Shown: piece by piece, positions 3,881 to 52,240 of the stretch
How positions within the stretch are numbered: position 1 is the stretch's first letter
How the letters are laid out: every line of letters begins with the position of its first letter
Assembly: GCF_000013205.1 (NCBI RefSeq)
Contig: NC_007775.1
Span: 1,918,501-1,982,500 of the forward strand
Direction of reading: 5' to 3'
Source: Synechococcus sp. JA-3-3Ab
GTDB taxonomy: Bacteria > Cyanobacteriota > Cyanobacteriia > Thermostichales > Thermostichaceae
Length of the DNA: 64,000 nt
Notes under the pieces: model-generated
The model's input: the letters and a program-made list of their open reading frames with translations, nothing else
What the model was told of the DNA's origin: nothing
The model's database searches: none
Program-made: the position numbers and the translations under genes

Positions 3881-4039
3881 GAAAAAAGCCGAGACCGGCT
3901 GGACCAGTGGCACGCCTTGCTGACAAGCTGCCCCAGCCTCCCTCGCCTCCATCAGAACCTCCGGGGTACTCCCGCCACAGCGCAGCTTGGCGGGATGGGG
4001 GATAGGCGGTGAGACGAAGGGGTTCAATGCCCCTGAGTC

Positions 4040-4447
4040 TCACAATCTGGGCGTTGCCTGCTGCTCGACATACTTCTTCAACTCCTCAACGGTGACCCCA
4101 CCACAAGAGGCAACAAAATAGGCCCCTGTCCAAAATACAGGCTTGCTGTAGAACCGTGCCACCTCTGTGGCGAACTCTTTGCGAATCAACCGGCTGGAGA
4201 CTGTTTTCAGGTTGTTCACCAGCTTCGAGACCTGAACATCCGGCGGAAAACTCACCAACAGATGCACATGATCCGCCTCACCGTTGAACTCCACCAAGGA
4301 ACAGCGCCACTTTTGGCAGGTCGCTCGAAATATATCTTCCAGCCTCTGCAACATTGGAGCAGTTATCACCCGACGACGGTACTTTGTCACCAGCACCAAG
4401 TGGATTTGTAGGCTGTAAACAGAACGATGGCCTATGTTGTAGCTCAT
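4040..4447 (-). CDS. tnpA: IS200/IS605 TnpA, Y1 (HUH) single-strand transposase
   Basis: 135 residues from ATG 4445-4447. The HUH metal-binding motif is DHVHLL and the nucleophilic tyrosine is in KKYVEQQ near the C-terminus; the N-terminal block VLVTKYRRRVI is also typical. It cuts and joins single-stranded DNA at the hairpin ends of the element. A longer frame runs back towards 4516 but would overlap tnpB, and its extra residues are not family-like, so the internal ATG is chosen. Only 24 bp separate its start from the divergent tnpB start. All catalytic residues are present, so this copy could move itself and its relatives. Confidence 0.93.
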   Translation of the reverse strand: MSYNIGHRSVYSLQIHLVLVTKYRRRVITAPMLQRLEDIFRATCQKWRCSLVEFNGEADHVHLLVSFPPDVQVSKLVNNLKTVSSRLIRKEFATEVARFYSKPVFWTGAYFVASCGGVTVEELKKYVEQQATPRL

Positions 4448-4471
4448 TGCGCTAAATGCTAGAACCGTCTC

Positions 4472-5713
4472 ATGATTATCACCTACGAGTACCGGATCCT
4501 GCCCAGCGACGACCAAGCCGCTCTGATGACCGAGTGGCTGGAATTGTTGCGGCGGCAGTGGAACGACGCTCTGGGGCAGAGACTGGATTGGCTGACCGCA
4601 ACCCGTTGTCCAATTGACCGCTGCAGCCTTGTCTCTTGTCCGTTGCCTGTGTCAGAACCCCCGCTGGAGCCGAATTATTATCGGCAGGCGGGATCCCTCA
4701 AACAAATCAAGCAACTGTTCCCGGCCTACCGGGGCATTTACGCCGAGGTGCTGCAGCAAAACTTGATGCGGCTGGACAAGGCGTGGAAAGCGTGGCGGGA
4801 GCCGGATAGCACAGGCAAGCGGCGGGGGCGGCCCCGCTTCAAAAAAGCGGGGGAGTTGAGATCCTTCACATTCCCCCGCATCAATTGCCCCAAGGCGGGA
4901 GCGCATCTGGAAGGGGAGACTCTGCGGCTGAGCAAGATTGGCTCGCTGCCTGTGGTGCTGCACCGCCCCTTGCCGGAGGGGTTCGCGCCCAAAACCTGCA
5001 CAGTGGTGCGCAAGGCCGATGGGTGGTATGTCTGCATCACCTTGGAGGACAAAAGCGTTCCTCTCCCAGAGCCTGTGCCGATCAAAAAGGCGGTGGGCAT
5101 TGATGTGGGATTGGATAGGTTTCTCACCACCAGCGATGGGGAGGTGGTGCCTATCCCGCGGCACTACCGCCAAGCTCAAAAGCACTTGGCCCGACAGCAG
5201 CGGCAACTGAGCCGCAAAGTGAAGGGGTCCGCCAACTGGAAGAGACAAGCCACGAAAGTTGCTTGTTTGCAGTTGCACGTTGCCCGACAACGCAAAGCGT
5301 TCCACTACCAAGTGGCGCACTGGCTGGTGGGGCAATACGACCTGTTGGTGGTGGAGGATCTCAACGTCCGAGGGCTGGCACGGACTCGGTTGGCTAAATC
5401 GATTTTGGATGCGGCTTGGGGACGATTTCTCGACATTCTGACAGCAGTGGCGGTCAAACGCGGCAAACAGGTGTTGAGAGTGGATCCCCGTGGTACGTCC
5501 CAAAATTGTTGTGTTTGTGAGGAGCGTGTTCCCAAGGCCTTGTCGGAACGGGTGCATGATTGCCCCCGTTGCGGGTCGTGGGACAGAGACTTGAACGCTG
5601 CTATCGAGATTTTGAAGCGTGGACTCAGGTCCCCCCGTATACGGGGGGATATAGGGGGGCGGTGGGACTGCCGCTCTCTGGCTGTGGAGGATCCTGGTTT
5701 ACCAGTCCGTTGA
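4472..5713 (+). CDS. tnpB: IS605-family TnpB, RNA-guided nuclease (C-terminus altered by a 29-bp insertion)
   Basis: 413 residues. The RuvC residues are visible: Asp in GIDVGLDRF, Glu in VVEDLNVRGL, and Asp in SWDRDLNAAIEIL. The zinc finger pairs CCVC and CPRC lie just before the last motif. TnpB cuts DNA guided by an RNA made from the element's right end. After the last RuvC motif a 29-bp palindromic insertion (5630-5658) shifts the frame, so the last 26 or so residues differ from the tail of the copy at 50762-52033. All catalytic parts lie upstream of the insertion, so activity may survive. Confidence 0.93.
   Translation: MIITYEYRILPSDDQAALMTEWLELLRRQWNDALGQRLDWLTATRCPIDRCSLVSCPLPVSEPPLEPNYYRQAGSLKQIKQLFPAYRGIYAEVLQQNLMRLDKAWKAWREPDSTGKRRGRPRFKKAGELRSFTFPRINCPKAGAHLEGETLRLSKIGSLPVVLHRPLPEGFAPKTCTVVRKADGWYVCITLEDKSVPLPEPVPIKKAVGIDVGLDRFLTTSDGEVVPIPRHYRQAQKHLARQQRQLSRKVKGSANWKRQATKVACLQLHVARQRKAFHYQVAHWLVGQYDLLVVEDLNVRGLARTRLAKSILDAAWGRFLDILTAVAVKRGKQVLRVDPRGTSQNCCVCEERVPKALSERVHDCPRCGSWDRDLNAAIEILKRGLRSPRIRGDIGGRWDCRSLAVEDPGLPVR
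5630..5658. repeat. 29-bp GTATAC-centred palindromic element inserted in tnpB
   Basis: The core CCCCCCGTATACGGGGGG is a perfect 18-bp palindrome, followed by ATATA and another G-run. The second IS copy runs straight from GGACTCAGG into GCGGTGGG at the equivalent point (about 51920), so this block is a clean 29-bp insertion here, or a precise loss there. Closely related blocks occur at 48265-48294 and 22569-22598. No target duplication longer than a base or two can be seen because both flanks are G-rich. Confidence 0.85.
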
Positions 5714-5744
5714 AGCAGCAACTCCGGGAAGTGATTCTCGGAAG

Positions 5745-5778
5745 CTCCCGTCTACAGCCCGTCAGGGCTTAGCGGGAG
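5745..5778 (+). ncRNA. Right-end hairpin of IS copy 1; likely 3' scaffold of the TnpB guide RNA
   Basis: Two nested stems: CTCCCG 5745-5750 with CGGGAG 5773-5778, and AGCCC 5756-5760 with GGGCT 5765-5769 closing a GTCA tetraloop. In IS605 elements the right end is both the transposase substrate and the 3' part of the omega RNA; the bases just outside the element (from 5789) would form the guide. Here those bases are the antisense of the last codons of ndhD. RNA production is inferred from the family, not seen. Confidence 0.55.
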
Positions 5779-5789
5779 AGGATGTCACT

Positions 5790-41701: not shown

Positions 41702-41825
41702 CAGGTTTTCTTTTGTTTCCAATTTCTAGGGATCCCCCCGAAGGGGGAACCATCCGGGATGTTGCCCGGATACTCGGGCGGGTCCATCTGTTTCCAATTT
41801 CTAGGGATCCCCCCGAAGGGGGAAC
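41641..41825 (-). CRISPR. Mini CRISPR-like array: two identical 36-nt repeats and one degenerate repeat
   Basis: Repeats at 41715-41750 and 41790-41825 are identical over 36 nt, with a 39-nt spacer (41751-41789). A third block at 41641-41676 matches about three quarters of the repeat and lies 38 nt before the first, as expected for a degenerate terminal repeat. Read on the minus strand, the repeat starts GTTCCCCCTTCGGGGGGATC and ends AAATTGGAAAC, like many cyanobacterial repeats. The leader should then be at the high-coordinate side. No cas gene is in the window. The spacer contains ATCCGGG/CCCGGAT as an inverted repeat. Confidence 0.68.
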
Positions 41826-48183: not shown

Positions 48184-48264
48184 TTTAGCTAATCCGCCGT
48201 TCGCGCTAGCGGGACGTAGTCCTGGAAGCCCCGCTCTGTACCCCCCAGTCCCCCAGCCCCCCAG

Positions 48265-48294
48265 TCCCCCCGTATACGGGGGGATATAGGGGGG
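48265..48294. repeat. GTATAC-centred palindromic element, intergenic copy
   Basis: TCCCCCCGTATACGGGGGG then ATATAGGGGGG: the same sequence as the 29-bp block inserted in tnpB copy 1 (5630-5658), apart from an extra G at the end. It follows a stretch of CCCCCCAGT repeats and is about 60 bp upstream of the tnpB start at 48355. Confidence 0.85.
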
Positions 48295-48354
48295 GCGGGC
48301 CGGTCAGAGTCAGGATGAGAGGCGGGAGCGTTCAACAGGTACAATGCATTCATC

Positions 48355-49581
48355 ATGAGAACCGCTTACCAGTACCGCTTGCGCCCTACTGCTAGCCAAG
48401 TCGCCCTGATGGGTGAGTGGCTGGAGCTGCTGCGTAAGCAGTACAACTATCGCCTGGCAGAACGGTTCAACGGGTGGGAGCAGAATCGCTGCAATATCCA
48501 TGCCTGCTCCTTGACGGTCTGCCATCTGCCTGAGTTGAAAGACAAGCCCGATTTCGACTCACAGAAACGAGACTTGGTAAACACAAAGGCTCTCTTCCCC
48601 GAATACCAAGCGATTCATTCCCAGGTGCTCCAAGACTGTGTAGAACGAGTGCAAAGAGCGTTTGACCGATGGCTAAAAGGTGACTGTAACGGCAAGCGGG
48701 CAGGCAGGCCCAGGTTTAAGGGTGTTGGGCGGTATCGCTCCTTCACCTTCCCTCAGATGAAGCAGGACTGCATTCGAGGGCAGTTTATCCATCTGCCCAA
48801 AATTGGGCCGGTCAAGCTGGTCCAACACCGTCCTTTGCCTGAGGGGTTTGTTATCAAAACGGCCACCATCACCCGCAAGGTGGATGGGTGGTACGTCACC
48901 TTGAGTTTGCAGGATTCGTCTGTCCCGGAATGGAGCCCTGACACGCCAACGTGGGAAAACACGATGGGGATAGACCTGGGGCTAAGCTCTTTCTTGGTCA
49001 CCGATGAGGGTGAGGCGGTTGAGGTTCCTCAGCATTACCGTAGGGCGCAAAAGCCCCTCAAGCGGCTGCAACGGTCTGTATCGCGCAAGCAGAAGAGGCC
49101 AAACCGCTACCAGAAAGCGGTCAAGAGGTTGAGCAAGGCACATCAGAAAGTAGCCAACCAGCGCCGAGATTTTCACCACAAAACTGCCCGCAAACTTTTG
49201 CAGACAAGAAAGCACATAGCCCATGAGGCGTTGGACATCAAAGGTCTGGCGAGGACTCGACTGGCCAAATCTGTGCATGATGCTGGGTGGGGGCAGTTCC
49301 TGCAAATTCTGGCAGCCAAGGCTGAAAGAGCTGGGCTGTTGACGATTGCAGGGGATCCCCGCGGCAGCAGTCAAGGGTGCTCGGGGTGTGGTCGTGAGGT
49401 GCCCAAAAAGCTGCATGAGCGGTGGCACGATTGCCCCTCCTGCGGGCTAAGGCTGTCACGGGATCACAACTCGGCGCGAGTTATCAAATCCAGAGCGGTG
49501 GGGCGTCCCGTTCTTCAAGCTCAGGAAATGTCCTGCCATTGGGCAGGAGTCACTGTTGGCGAAGCGTGGCGTAAGCCATGA
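48355..49581 (+). CDS. tnpB: IS605-family TnpB (stand-alone)
   Basis: 408 residues. It is a distant relative of the other two IS605 TnpBs (same [18 protein letters not shown] opening pattern). RuvC residues: Asp in GIDLGLSSF, Glu in [18 protein letters not shown], and Asp in [11 protein letters not shown]. The zinc pairs are CSGC and CPSC. All look intact. No tnpA accompanies it. It should make an RNA-guided nuclease using its own right-end RNA. Confidence 0.92.
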
Positions 49582-50161: not shown

Positions 50162-50329
50162 TGGGCCAACAGCGGCCAGCAGCGGGGCCTTTGGCGCTCC
50201 GCAACCGCGGGGCAAGTGGGGGGTGGCCATCTGTTTTCCCCATCAGAACCTCCGGGGTACTCCCGCCACAGCGCAGCTTGGCGGGTGGGGGATAGGCGGT
50301 GAGACGAAGGGGTTCAATGCCCCTGAGTC

Positions 50330-50737
50330 TCACAATCTGGGCGTTGCCTGCTGCTCAACATACTTCTTCAACTCCTCAACGGTGACCCCACCACAAGAGG
50401 CAACAAAATAGGCCCCTGTCCAAAATACAGGCTTGCTGTAGAACCGTGCCACCTCTGTGGCGAACTCTTTGCGAATCAACCGGCTGGAGACTGTTTTCAG
50501 GTTGTTCACCAGCTTCGAGACCTGAACATCCGGCGGAAAACTCACCAACAGATGCACATGATCCGCCTCACCGTTGAACTCCACCAAGGAACAGCACCAC
50601 TTTTGGCAGGTCGCTCGAAATATATCTTCCAGCCTCTGCAACATTGGAGCAGTTATCACCCGACGACGGTACTTTGTCACCAGCACCAAGTGGATTTGTA
50701 GGCTGTAAACAGAACGATGGCCTATGTTGTAGCTCGT
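50330..50737 (-). pseudogene. tnpA: IS200/IS605 TnpA copy 2, start codon lost (ATG to ACG)
   Basis: The same transposase as at 4040-4447 with DHVHLL and the tyrosine in KKYVEQQ intact. The codon at 50735-50737 that starts copy 1 is ACG here, and one internal Arg has become Cys (QKWCCSL). The nearest in-frame alternative is a TTG near 50806, inside the start of tnpB, and no ATG or GTG is better placed. Expression is therefore probably poor or absent, and this copy may depend on copy 1. ACG starts can work weakly, so it may not be dead. Confidence 0.75.
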
Positions 50738-50761
50738 TGCGCTAAATGCTAGAACCGTCTC

Positions 50762-52033
50762 ATGATTATCACCTACGAGTACCGGATCCTGCCCAGCGAC
50801 GACCAAGCCGCTCTGATGACCGAGTGGCTGGAATTGTTGCGGCGGCAGTGGAACGACGCTCTGGGGCAGAGACTGGATTGGCTGACCGCAACCCGTTGTC
50901 CAATTGACCGCTGCAGCCTTGTCTCTTGTCCGTTGCCTGTGTCAGAAGCTCCGCTGGAGCCGAATTATTATCGGCAGGCGGGATCCCTCAAACAAATCAA
51001 GCAACTGTTCCCGGCCTACCGGGGCATTTACGCCGAGGTGCTGCAGCAAAACTTGATGCGGCTGGACAAGGCGTGGAAAGCGTGGCAGGTGCCGGATAGC
51101 ACAGGCAAGCGGCGGGGGCGGCCCCGCTTCAAAAAAGCGGGGGAGTTGAGATCCTTCACATTCCCCCGCATCAATTGCCCCAAGGCGGGAGCGCATCTGG
51201 AAGGGGAGACTCTGCGGCTGAGCAAGATTGGCTCGCTGCCTGTGGTGCTGCACCGCCCCTTACCAGAGGGGTTTGTGCCCAAAACCTGCACAGTGGTGCG
51301 CAAGGCCGATGGGTGGTATGTCTGCATTACTTTGGAGGACAAAAGCGTTCCTCTCCCAGAGCCTGTGCCGATCAAAAAGGCGGTGGGCATTGATGTGGGA
51401 TTGGATAGGTTTCTCACCACCAGCGATGGGGAGGTGGTGCCTATCCCGCGGTACTACCGCCAAGCTCAAAAGCACTTGGCCCGACAGCAGCGGCAACTGA
51501 GCCGCAAGGTGAAGGGATCCGCCAACTGGAAGAGACAAGCCACGAAAGTTGCTTGTTTGCAGTTGCACGTTGCCCGACAACGCAAAGCGTTCCACTACCA
51601 AGTGGCGCACTGGCTGGTGGGGCAATACGACCTGTTGGTGGTGGAGGATCTCAACGTCCGAGGGCTGGCACGGACTCGGTTGGCTAAATCGATTTTGGAT
51701 GCGGCTTGGGGACGATTTCTTGACATTCTGACAGCAGTGGCGGTCAAACGCGGCAAACAGGTGTTGAGAGTGGATCCCCGTGGTACGTCCCAAAATTGTT
51801 GTGTTTGTGAGGAGCGTGTTCCCAAGGCCTTGTCGGAACGGGTGCATGATTGCCCCCGTTGCGGGTCGTGGGACAGAGACTTGAACGCTGCTATCGAGAT
51901 TTTGAAGCGAGGACTCAGGGCGGTGGGACTGCCGCTCTCTGGCTGTGGAGGATCCTGGTTTACCAGTCCGTTGAAGCAGCAACTCCGGGAAGTGATTCCC
52001 GGAAGCTCCCGTCTACAGCCCGTCAGGGCTTAG
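50762..52033 (+). CDS. tnpB: IS605-family TnpB copy 2 (full-length C-terminus)
   Basis: 423 residues. The catalytic blocks (GIDVGLDRF, VVEDLNVRGL, SWDRDLNAA) and zinc pairs (CCVC, CPRC) are the same as in copy 1. Without the 29-bp insertion the frame continues through GLPLSGCGGSWFTSPLK to the stop just before the right end, which is probably the original C-terminus. A handful of substitutions separate the copies (for example Pro to Ala, Ala to Val). It should be functional. Confidence 0.94.
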   Translation: MIITYEYRILPSDDQAALMTEWLELLRRQWNDALGQRLDWLTATRCPIDRCSLVSCPLPVSEAPLEPNYYRQAGSLKQIKQLFPAYRGIYAEVLQQNLMRLDKAWKAWQVPDSTGKRRGRPRFKKAGELRSFTFPRINCPKAGAHLEGETLRLSKIGSLPVVLHRPLPEGFVPKTCTVVRKADGWYVCITLEDKSVPLPEPVPIKKAVGIDVGLDRFLTTSDGEVVPIPRYYRQAQKHLARQQRQLSRKVKGSANWKRQATKVACLQLHVARQRKAFHYQVAHWLVGQYDLLVVEDLNVRGLARTRLAKSILDAAWGRFLDILTAVAVKRGKQVLRVDPRGTSQNCCVCEERVPKALSERVHDCPRCGSWDRDLNAAIEILKRGLRAVGLPLSGCGGSWFTSPLKQQLREVIPGSSRLQPVRA

Positions 52034-52039
52034 CGGGAG
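52006..52039 (+). ncRNA. Right-end hairpin of IS copy 2; likely guide-RNA scaffold
   Basis: CTCCCG 52006-52011 / CGGGAG 52034-52039 and AGCCC 52017-52021 / GGGCT 52026-52030 around GTCA: identical to copy 1. The bases after 52049 would form the guide and come from the fabZ-lpxA intergenic region. Confidence 0.5.
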
Positions 52040-52240
52040 AGGATGTCACCGAGGAGGAGCCCAGCGGAGGCAACTTGGCGTGGAAAGACCCTGCTAAAGT
52101 GTTGGGATAGGGGCATGTCAAGTGCTGCTTTCACCTCCCGGTCGGAGTTTCACAGCAGAGCGGTGGAGGATTGTGCCCTCCCCAAGCAAGCCCTAATCGC
52201 AGGGTTGGGAGCGTAGCTACATTTGCTGGCTAGGTTAGAA

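What the first reader, a model, noticed from the sequence alone, without database searches (positions are those of the whole stretch)
5630..5658. A 29-bp palindrome has inserted into (or been cleanly lost from) a tnpB, caught by two near-identical IS copies
Copy 1 of the IS200/IS605 element has CCCCCCGTATACGGGGGG plus a short arm exactly where copy 2 (at about 51920) has none; everything around matches base for base. The event changes the frame after the last RuvC motif and gives copy 1 a different C-terminus. This is direct evidence that a tiny, non-coding palindrome can move or be copied as a unit. Which copy is ancestral is inferred: copy 2 gives the tail that runs naturally up to the right end.
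Basis: seen in the sequence. Interest (0 to 1): 0.72.

Follow-up and report, generated by a model that had tools for sequence, protein, structure and literature searches.

The report
Mobile GC hairpin inside transposon gene
A 29-base piece of a repeated DNA hairpin has inserted into a transposon gene of this cyanobacterium; the same kind of hairpin recurs about 60 times in this genome and also in unrelated bacteria, which makes it a good natural example of a very small mobile DNA.

Summary
Window 5630-5658 holds 29 bp absent from copy 2 at 51919/51920. The genome has 16 copies of this IS200/IS605-type element: 9 with the block, 7 without. Homologous ISs in two congeners all lack it, so the block is a derived insertion and copy 2 shows the ancestral state. 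The 18-bp core occurs 32 times exactly and 64 times with up to 3 mismatches in the genome, but is absent (<=1 mismatch) from five congeners. The block is a left-truncated copy of a ~40-nt nested hairpin, C6-AGT-C6-GTATAC-G6-ATATA-G6. Related hairpins sit at a second site in the same tnpB, at terminal hairpins of two other IS605-type families, in frame in thyX, and at roughly 20 unique sites. The same architecture, with compensatory T:A/C:G changes in the core, recurs in MAGs labelled Anaerolineae and Zipacnadia, and the general pattern also in Thiotrichaceae and an unclassified MAG. It lacks the GTAG/CGTC tag of classical REPs. Most likely: an untagged REP-like mobile hairpin, copied at short C/G homologies, then spread by IS movement and conversion. 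The insertion is shown; the mechanism is inferred.

The parts
3949..5788 (+). IS copy 1 (IS200/IS605-type, tnpA+tnpB; 'IS-W' in this report), carries the block
   Evidence: shared ends CCATCAGAA...GGATGTCAC with unrelated flanks in 16 genomic copies
4040..4447 (-). tnpA, Y1 (HUH) transposase, 135 aa
   Evidence: Pfam PF01797 Y1_Tnp E=2.4e-42
4472..5713 (+). tnpB of copy 1, 413 aa with altered C-terminus
   Evidence: PF01385, PF07282, PF12323; ORF
5630..5658 (+). 29-bp inserted block TCCCCCCGTATACGGGGGGATATAGGGGG (site B), truncated type-1 hairpin
   Evidence: absent in 7 of 16 copies and in congener homologs
5631..5648 (.). perfect palindrome CCCCCCGTATACGGGGGG (core hairpin)
   Evidence: 32 exact genomic copies
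4879..4890 (+). site A (TTGCCCCAAGG region) of the same tnpB, empty in both window copies; 4 other genomic copies carry type-2 hairpin arrays here (+38, +52, +52, +63 bp)
50240..52049 (+). IS copy 2 without the block (ancestral state)
51919..51920 (+). empty site B in copy 2
50762..52033 (+). tnpB of copy 2, 423 aa, with the ancestral C-terminus
48241..48295 (+). full hairpin array (C6 AGT C5 AG C6 AGT C6 GTATAC G6 ATATA G7) in the left end of another IS605-type element (IS-Y)
48355..49581 (+). tnpB of IS-Y, just downstream of that array
   Evidence: PF01385/PF07282/PF12323
22570..22587 (+). further palindrome copy, 1 mismatch, symmetric arms CTTTC/ATGAAAG

Best explanation
The block is a derived insertion of a partial copy of a REP-like, untagged nested hairpin (about 40 nt, C6-spacer-C6-GYNNRC-G6-spacer-G6). 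Shown: polarity (absent to present), family membership, species-restricted amplification within the genus, and conservation of the hairpin by compensatory change in other genomes. Inferred: the hairpin was copied into tnpB by a replication or repair template switch (or single-strand annealing) of a hairpin-forming donor, using short C-run and G-run homology at the target, without target-site duplication. The filled IS then carried the block to other loci by transposition and gene conversion between IS copies. Array length later changes by gain and loss of C6-spacer units. The insertion changes the last ~26-36 residues of TnpB after the last catalytic region and leaves the reading frame open; it may also alter the guide RNA that, in this family, comes from the 3' end of tnpB (inferred).
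For: 9 filled / 7 empty copies with identical flanks; congener homologs empty; IS copies mosaic by the four-gamete test; 64 palindromes at <=3 mismatches in this genome, none at <=1 mismatch in 5 congeners; general nested pattern 53 raw matches here, 0 in congeners; second insertion at site A in 3 length versions with loss of the target AA; right edge of both inserts coincides with GGCGG already in the target, left edge with GCCCC (site A) or CAG(G) (site B); type-1 spacers (AGT/ATATA) in block B match left-end arrays, type-2 spacers (TG/TT) at site A match right-end arrays of IS-X, so existing copies were used as donors; intergenic insertions absent from congeners at 1240283 and 1243493; in-frame insertion in thyX; 4-5 array versions in 7 near-identical IS-Y copies; core pair 2:5 is Watson-Crick in 35 of 36 distinct elements of other genomes, shuffled mean 19.1, 0 of 20,000 shuffles reach it.
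Against: Junction homology at site B is only 2 nt that are certain (longer only if the donor resembled the IS-Y array). Only two junction pairs are base-precise; congener flanks at other sites are too diverged. No donor locus can be named. Most elements at unique sites are complete units with both outer arms, which a transposase would also give.
Confidence: 0.5

Rival explanations
1. REP-type transposition: a Y1 transposase (the IS's own TnpA, 13 of 19 Y1 matches in the genome) recognises the GC hairpin as single-stranded DNA and inserts it in trans, as proposed for REP/REPIN elements with RAYTs.
For: The genome has many TnpA (Y1) genes; hairpins sit exactly at the left-end and right-end hairpin positions of IS605-type IS-X and in the left end of IS-Y; stem-internal loop-stem shape as in REPs; many complete units at unique sites.
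Against: No GTAG/CGTC tag enrichment next to the elements here or in three other genomes; the only non-IS Y1 gene (457276) has no palindrome within 90 kb; no constant flanking target; block B lacks one outer arm; site A lost 2 target bases.
Confidence: 0.3
2. Hairpin-tip growth: the family arose in place from the IS-X left-end hairpin (TACCC-GTA-GGGT), whose tip duplicated inversely to CCC-GTA-TAC-GGG and then grew, and copies later leaked elsewhere.
For: Empty IS-X left ends have CACTGTACCC-GTA-GGGTCAGTG in the congener and in own copies; filled ones have the array exactly at the tip, with flanking stems kept by paired changes (CACTG/CAGTG, CCCTG/CAGGG, CTCTG/CAGAG). The core GTATAC is GTA plus its reverse complement.
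Against: The same nested architecture occurs in MAGs of other phyla in unrelated contexts; it could equally be insertion of a pre-existing hairpin into a hairpin tip.
Confidence: 0.15
3. Loss: the block is an old part of the IS and was cleanly deleted from copy 2 and the other empty copies.
For: Presence and absence alone cannot give direction; arrays of C6 units do lose units.
Against: All homologous loci in two congeners are empty and retain the copy-2 type tail; 7 own copies share the identical gap-free junction.
Confidence: 0.05

Closest known systems
REP elements / BIMEs, GTAG- and CGTC-tagged palindromes (PMC3733652)
   Same: 20-40 nt stem-loop repeats dispersed in many copies, known in several phyla including Cyanobacteria and Chloroflexi; some sit inside other palindromes (T. 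roseum GTAG-23)
   Different: no GTAG or CGTC tag near the elements; no associated RAYT found; stems are C6/G6 runs in nested arrays of variable length
REPIN-RAYT system (PMC3116915)
   Same: miniature non-coding hairpin DNA that appears to be mobile, with an evolutionary link to IS200/IS605 ends
   Different: not paired inverted REPs with a tetranucleotide tag; no dedicated transposase identified
Small dispersed repeats of cyanobacteria (Elhai et al. 2008, from memory; paper not held)
   Same: very short mobile repeats in cyanobacteria seen by presence/absence, including inside other repeats
   Different: those I recall are described mainly from Nostoc; sequence relation to this family not tested
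Rickettsia palindromic elements (RPE; described in PMC3733652)
   Same: palindromic elements inserted in frame into protein genes, as in thyX here
   Different: RPEs are longer and of different sequence (from memory); only one in-frame case was seen here
IS605-derived MITEs of hot-spring Synechococcus (Nelson et al. 2012, from memory)
   Same: internal-deletion derivatives with both IS ends are present here (IS-X left end-array-right end)
   Different: here the arrays at both ends may be the recombination points that generate them; the hairpin itself is not an IS-end derivative in tnpB or thyX

Membership tests
REP element (GTAG/CGTC super-families) | short imperfect palindrome, many dispersed copies | tested here: met
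   64 palindromes at <=3 mismatches, 62 examined in context; nested stem-loop fold
REP element (GTAG/CGTC super-families) | unpaired GTAG or CGTC tag at one end | tested here: not met
   own 19 unique sites: 2 GTAG and 3 CGTC against background 2.3 and 2.0; other genomes 3 and 4 against 5 and 8
REPIN-RAYT | RAYT-type Y1 gene flanked by the repeat | tested here: not met
   Y1 genes are IS-W tnpA copies or fragments plus one at 457276 with no palindrome within about 90 kb; a diverged RAYT below the Pfam cut-off cannot be excluded
Classical MITE/transposon unit | target-site duplication at a clean insertion | tested here: not met
   site B shows only 2-nt junction ambiguity; site A lost two target bases
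IS200/IS605 (the host element) | Y1 tnpA, OrfB tnpB, subterminal hairpins | tested here: met
   Pfam hits; ends shared by 16 copies; end hairpins seen by eye only
Small dispersed repeats of cyanobacteria | sequence or structural family described by Elhai et al. 2008 | not testable with these tools
   paper not held

The most novel reading that the evidence does not exclude
An undescribed, untagged family of mobile DNA hairpins (C6-spacer-C6-GYNNRC-G6-spacer-G6) is present in several phyla, has a conserved structure and a common mobilising factor or process, and uses IS605-type terminal hairpins as a favoured niche.
Probability: 0.3. Interest if true: 0.8.

Novelty: new variant of a known kind. 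Interest (0 to 1): 0.58.

Why it matters
How the smallest mobile DNAs without their own enzyme move is still open. Here sixteen copies of one IS in one genome give a polarised filled/empty pair at two independent sites, with three length versions at one of them. A compact, testable hairpin with structure-keeping changes recurs in unrelated bacteria. Strain or population sequencing could read insertion junctions directly. The arrays also offer a simple route to MITEs: when both ends of an IS carry the array, recombination between them deletes the middle.

Tried and rejected
Rfam: nothing in the window region; on other loci only sub-threshold microRNA models, judged chance. Literature search for the motif letters: 0 papers. 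Viral contigs: 0 exact matches. Loss from copy 2: rejected by outgroups. Nine independent insertions at site B: rejected as unnecessary, since the blocks are near-identical and the IS copies are mosaic. An IS tree was computed, but its support is low (34-96%) and recombination makes it unsafe for counting events. Exact junctions at intergenic sites were sought in congeners, but divergence of about 15% and local rearrangement blur them. An early layout that reversed some loci gave false contexts and was replaced.

Full report
What is there. The window holds two copies of an IS200/IS605-type element (called IS-W here): copy 1 at 3949-5788 and copy 2 at 50240-52049. Each has a Y1 transposase gene on the minus strand and an OrfB/TnpB gene on the plus strand (Pfam PF01797; PF01385, PF07282, PF12323). 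Copy 1 carries TCCCCCCGTATACGGGGGGATATAGGGGG at 5630-5658, and copy 2 does not. The insert shifts the frame after ...EILKRGLR and gives a 413-aa product in place of 423 aa. The genome is 2,932,766 bp, the size I remember for Synechococcus sp. JA-3-3Ab; G004 at 3,046,682 bp matches JA-2-3B'a(2-13). Both names are from memory.

Sixteen copies. A genome search and alignment gave 16 IS-W copies. The finding's site (site B) is filled in 9 and empty in 7; the blocks are identical except one base in copy 2361293. A second site in the middle of tnpB (site A) is filled in 4 copies, in three length versions (+38, +52 twice, +63 bp). All four combinations of A and B occur. Outside the inserts the copies are mosaics: 289 of 416 near and 850 of 1,295 far informative site pairs show all four gametes. 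So conversion between IS copies is frequent, and one insertion at B is enough to explain nine filled copies. Five filled copies keep an open 413-aa TnpB, and the copy with the +63 insert and B keeps an open 434-aa frame.

Direction. Homologs of the IS in congeners G001 (three loci) and G005 (three loci) align across site B without the block and keep the copy-2 type sequence on both sides. The block is therefore derived. Site A has no outgroup across it; there the direction is inferred from 12 identical empty copies.

A genome-wide family. The 18-bp palindrome occurs 32 times exactly, 53 times with one mismatch allowed and 64 times with three. The reversed-pattern control gave 0 exact and 2 with three mismatches. 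Five congeners have none at <=1 mismatch, and one of 33 more distant relatives has one. The core is flanked by further C6 and G6 runs with recurring spacers: type 1 is C6-AGT-C6-GTATAC-G6-ATATA-G6, type 2 is C6-TG-C6-GTATAC-G6-TT-G6. The 29-bp block is type 1 without its left outer arm. The full type-1 unit folds as a nested hairpin at -18.9 kcal/mol as DNA (z -4.05), whereas the 30-nt fragment is not unusual for its composition (z -1.25).

Where the copies lie. Clustering the flanks of 62 copies gives 9 at site B, 4 at site A, 7 in the left end of another IS605-type element (IS-Y, one copy in the window at 48241-48295), about 20 at the ends of a third element (IS-X) or in its short deletion derivatives, and about 20 with unique flanks, a few of which are short IS-X remnants. 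In IS-X the empty left end is a hairpin CACTGTACCC-GTA-GGGTCAGTG, present in the congener and in seven own full-length copies; filled left ends carry the array exactly at the hairpin tip and keep paired outer stems. Filled right ends replace about 83 bp between tnpB and the terminus. Derivatives joining left end, array and right end look like deletions between two arrays (inferred). In thyX the array is in frame, and the encoded protein still matches the Thy1 family. In intergenic sites at 1240283 and 1243493 the congeners lack it.

Other bacteria. An exact scan of 84,980 species genomes found the 18-mer in a handful of MAGs, many times in an unclassified MAG (JZ-2.bins.100) and several times in an Anaerolineae MAG (records of the own genome may be left out there). 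The scan fixed only the core, yet the flanks show the same nested arms. A pattern that leaves the six core bases free gave raw counts of 98, 51, 5, 14 and 15 in five of eight such genomes and 0 in the reversed control (raw counts include register duplicates). Among 36 distinct elements from three of these genomes the core is always G....C, and positions 2 and 5 are C:G 22 times, T:A 13 times and T:G once; shuffling gives 19.1 on average and never 35 in 20,000 trials. That is a structure-keeping pattern. Relatedness of elements inside a genome is not corrected for, but both pair types occur within single genomes. In JZ-2 the hairpins sit inside a short element with terminal inverted repeats TTTAGTAGGTG...CACCTACTAAA. 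Whether the families share descent or converged is not known.

How it works. Three facts bear on mechanism. There is no target duplication at site B, only a 2-nt slide. At site A two target bases are lost, and the target has GCCCC on the left and GGCGG on the right, which continue into the insert. The spacers show that the insert at B matches left-end arrays and the insert at A matches right-end arrays, so existing copies were donors. I favour copying by template switch or annealing at short C/G homologies, then spread with the IS. The main rival is insertion of the hairpin by a Y1 transposase, as proposed for REPs (PMC3116915, PMC3733652). Against it: no GTAG or CGTC tag, no constant flank, no palindrome near the only other Y1 gene. 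For it: the niche at IS605 terminal hairpins and the completeness of most unique-site units. I cannot separate them here; two exact junctions are too few.

Verdict. It is one visible step in the spread of an untagged REP-like hairpin family. The kind of thing is known; this family, its nested C6/G6 form and its recurrence in distant bacteria I did not find described, within the open-access papers held.

Noticed in passing
L003:1094-1966 (genome 240475) and L098, L104, L106: The same ThyX loop holds an in-frame GC-hairpin insert (proline-rich) in this genome, a different in-frame repeat in G004 and what looks like an intein nearby in G001, while G003 has a short loop. The site seems unusually tolerant of insertions.
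   Followed up: partly
IS-W copies at genome 2738564 and 2652277: Both carry a ~1-kb insert at the same TA in tnpA, in opposite orientations, with ends TACAGCC...GGCTGTA: probably another IS nested in this one.
   Followed up: no
IS-W copy at genome 262279: A 13-bp tandem duplication (TGAACTCCACCAA) breaks tnpA.
   Followed up: no
window 41734-41747 and 41809-41822: Two identical CCCCCCGAAGGGGG hairpins about 75 bp apart in a short direct repeat.
   Followed up: no
L049 around 10502 (genome 1241501): Left and right flanks of this palindrome map to different places in G004 (about 1467681 and 1623298): a rearrangement boundary coincides with the palindrome.
   Followed up: partly
L198-L234, L293-L295 (JZ-2 MAG): A MITE-like element with inverted ends TTTAGTAGGTG/CACCTACTAAA whose interior is a mosaic of nested GC hairpins and a second module GGACTTCAGCAGCAACCCCACGTCAGTCC, in many size versions.
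   Followed up: partly
L171-L177 (IS-Y left ends): Four to five array versions among seven near-identical IS-Y copies; in L177 the outer left arm C6-TATAT is mirrored on the right as G6-ATATA, as if one arm had been copied across the palindrome.
   Followed up: partly
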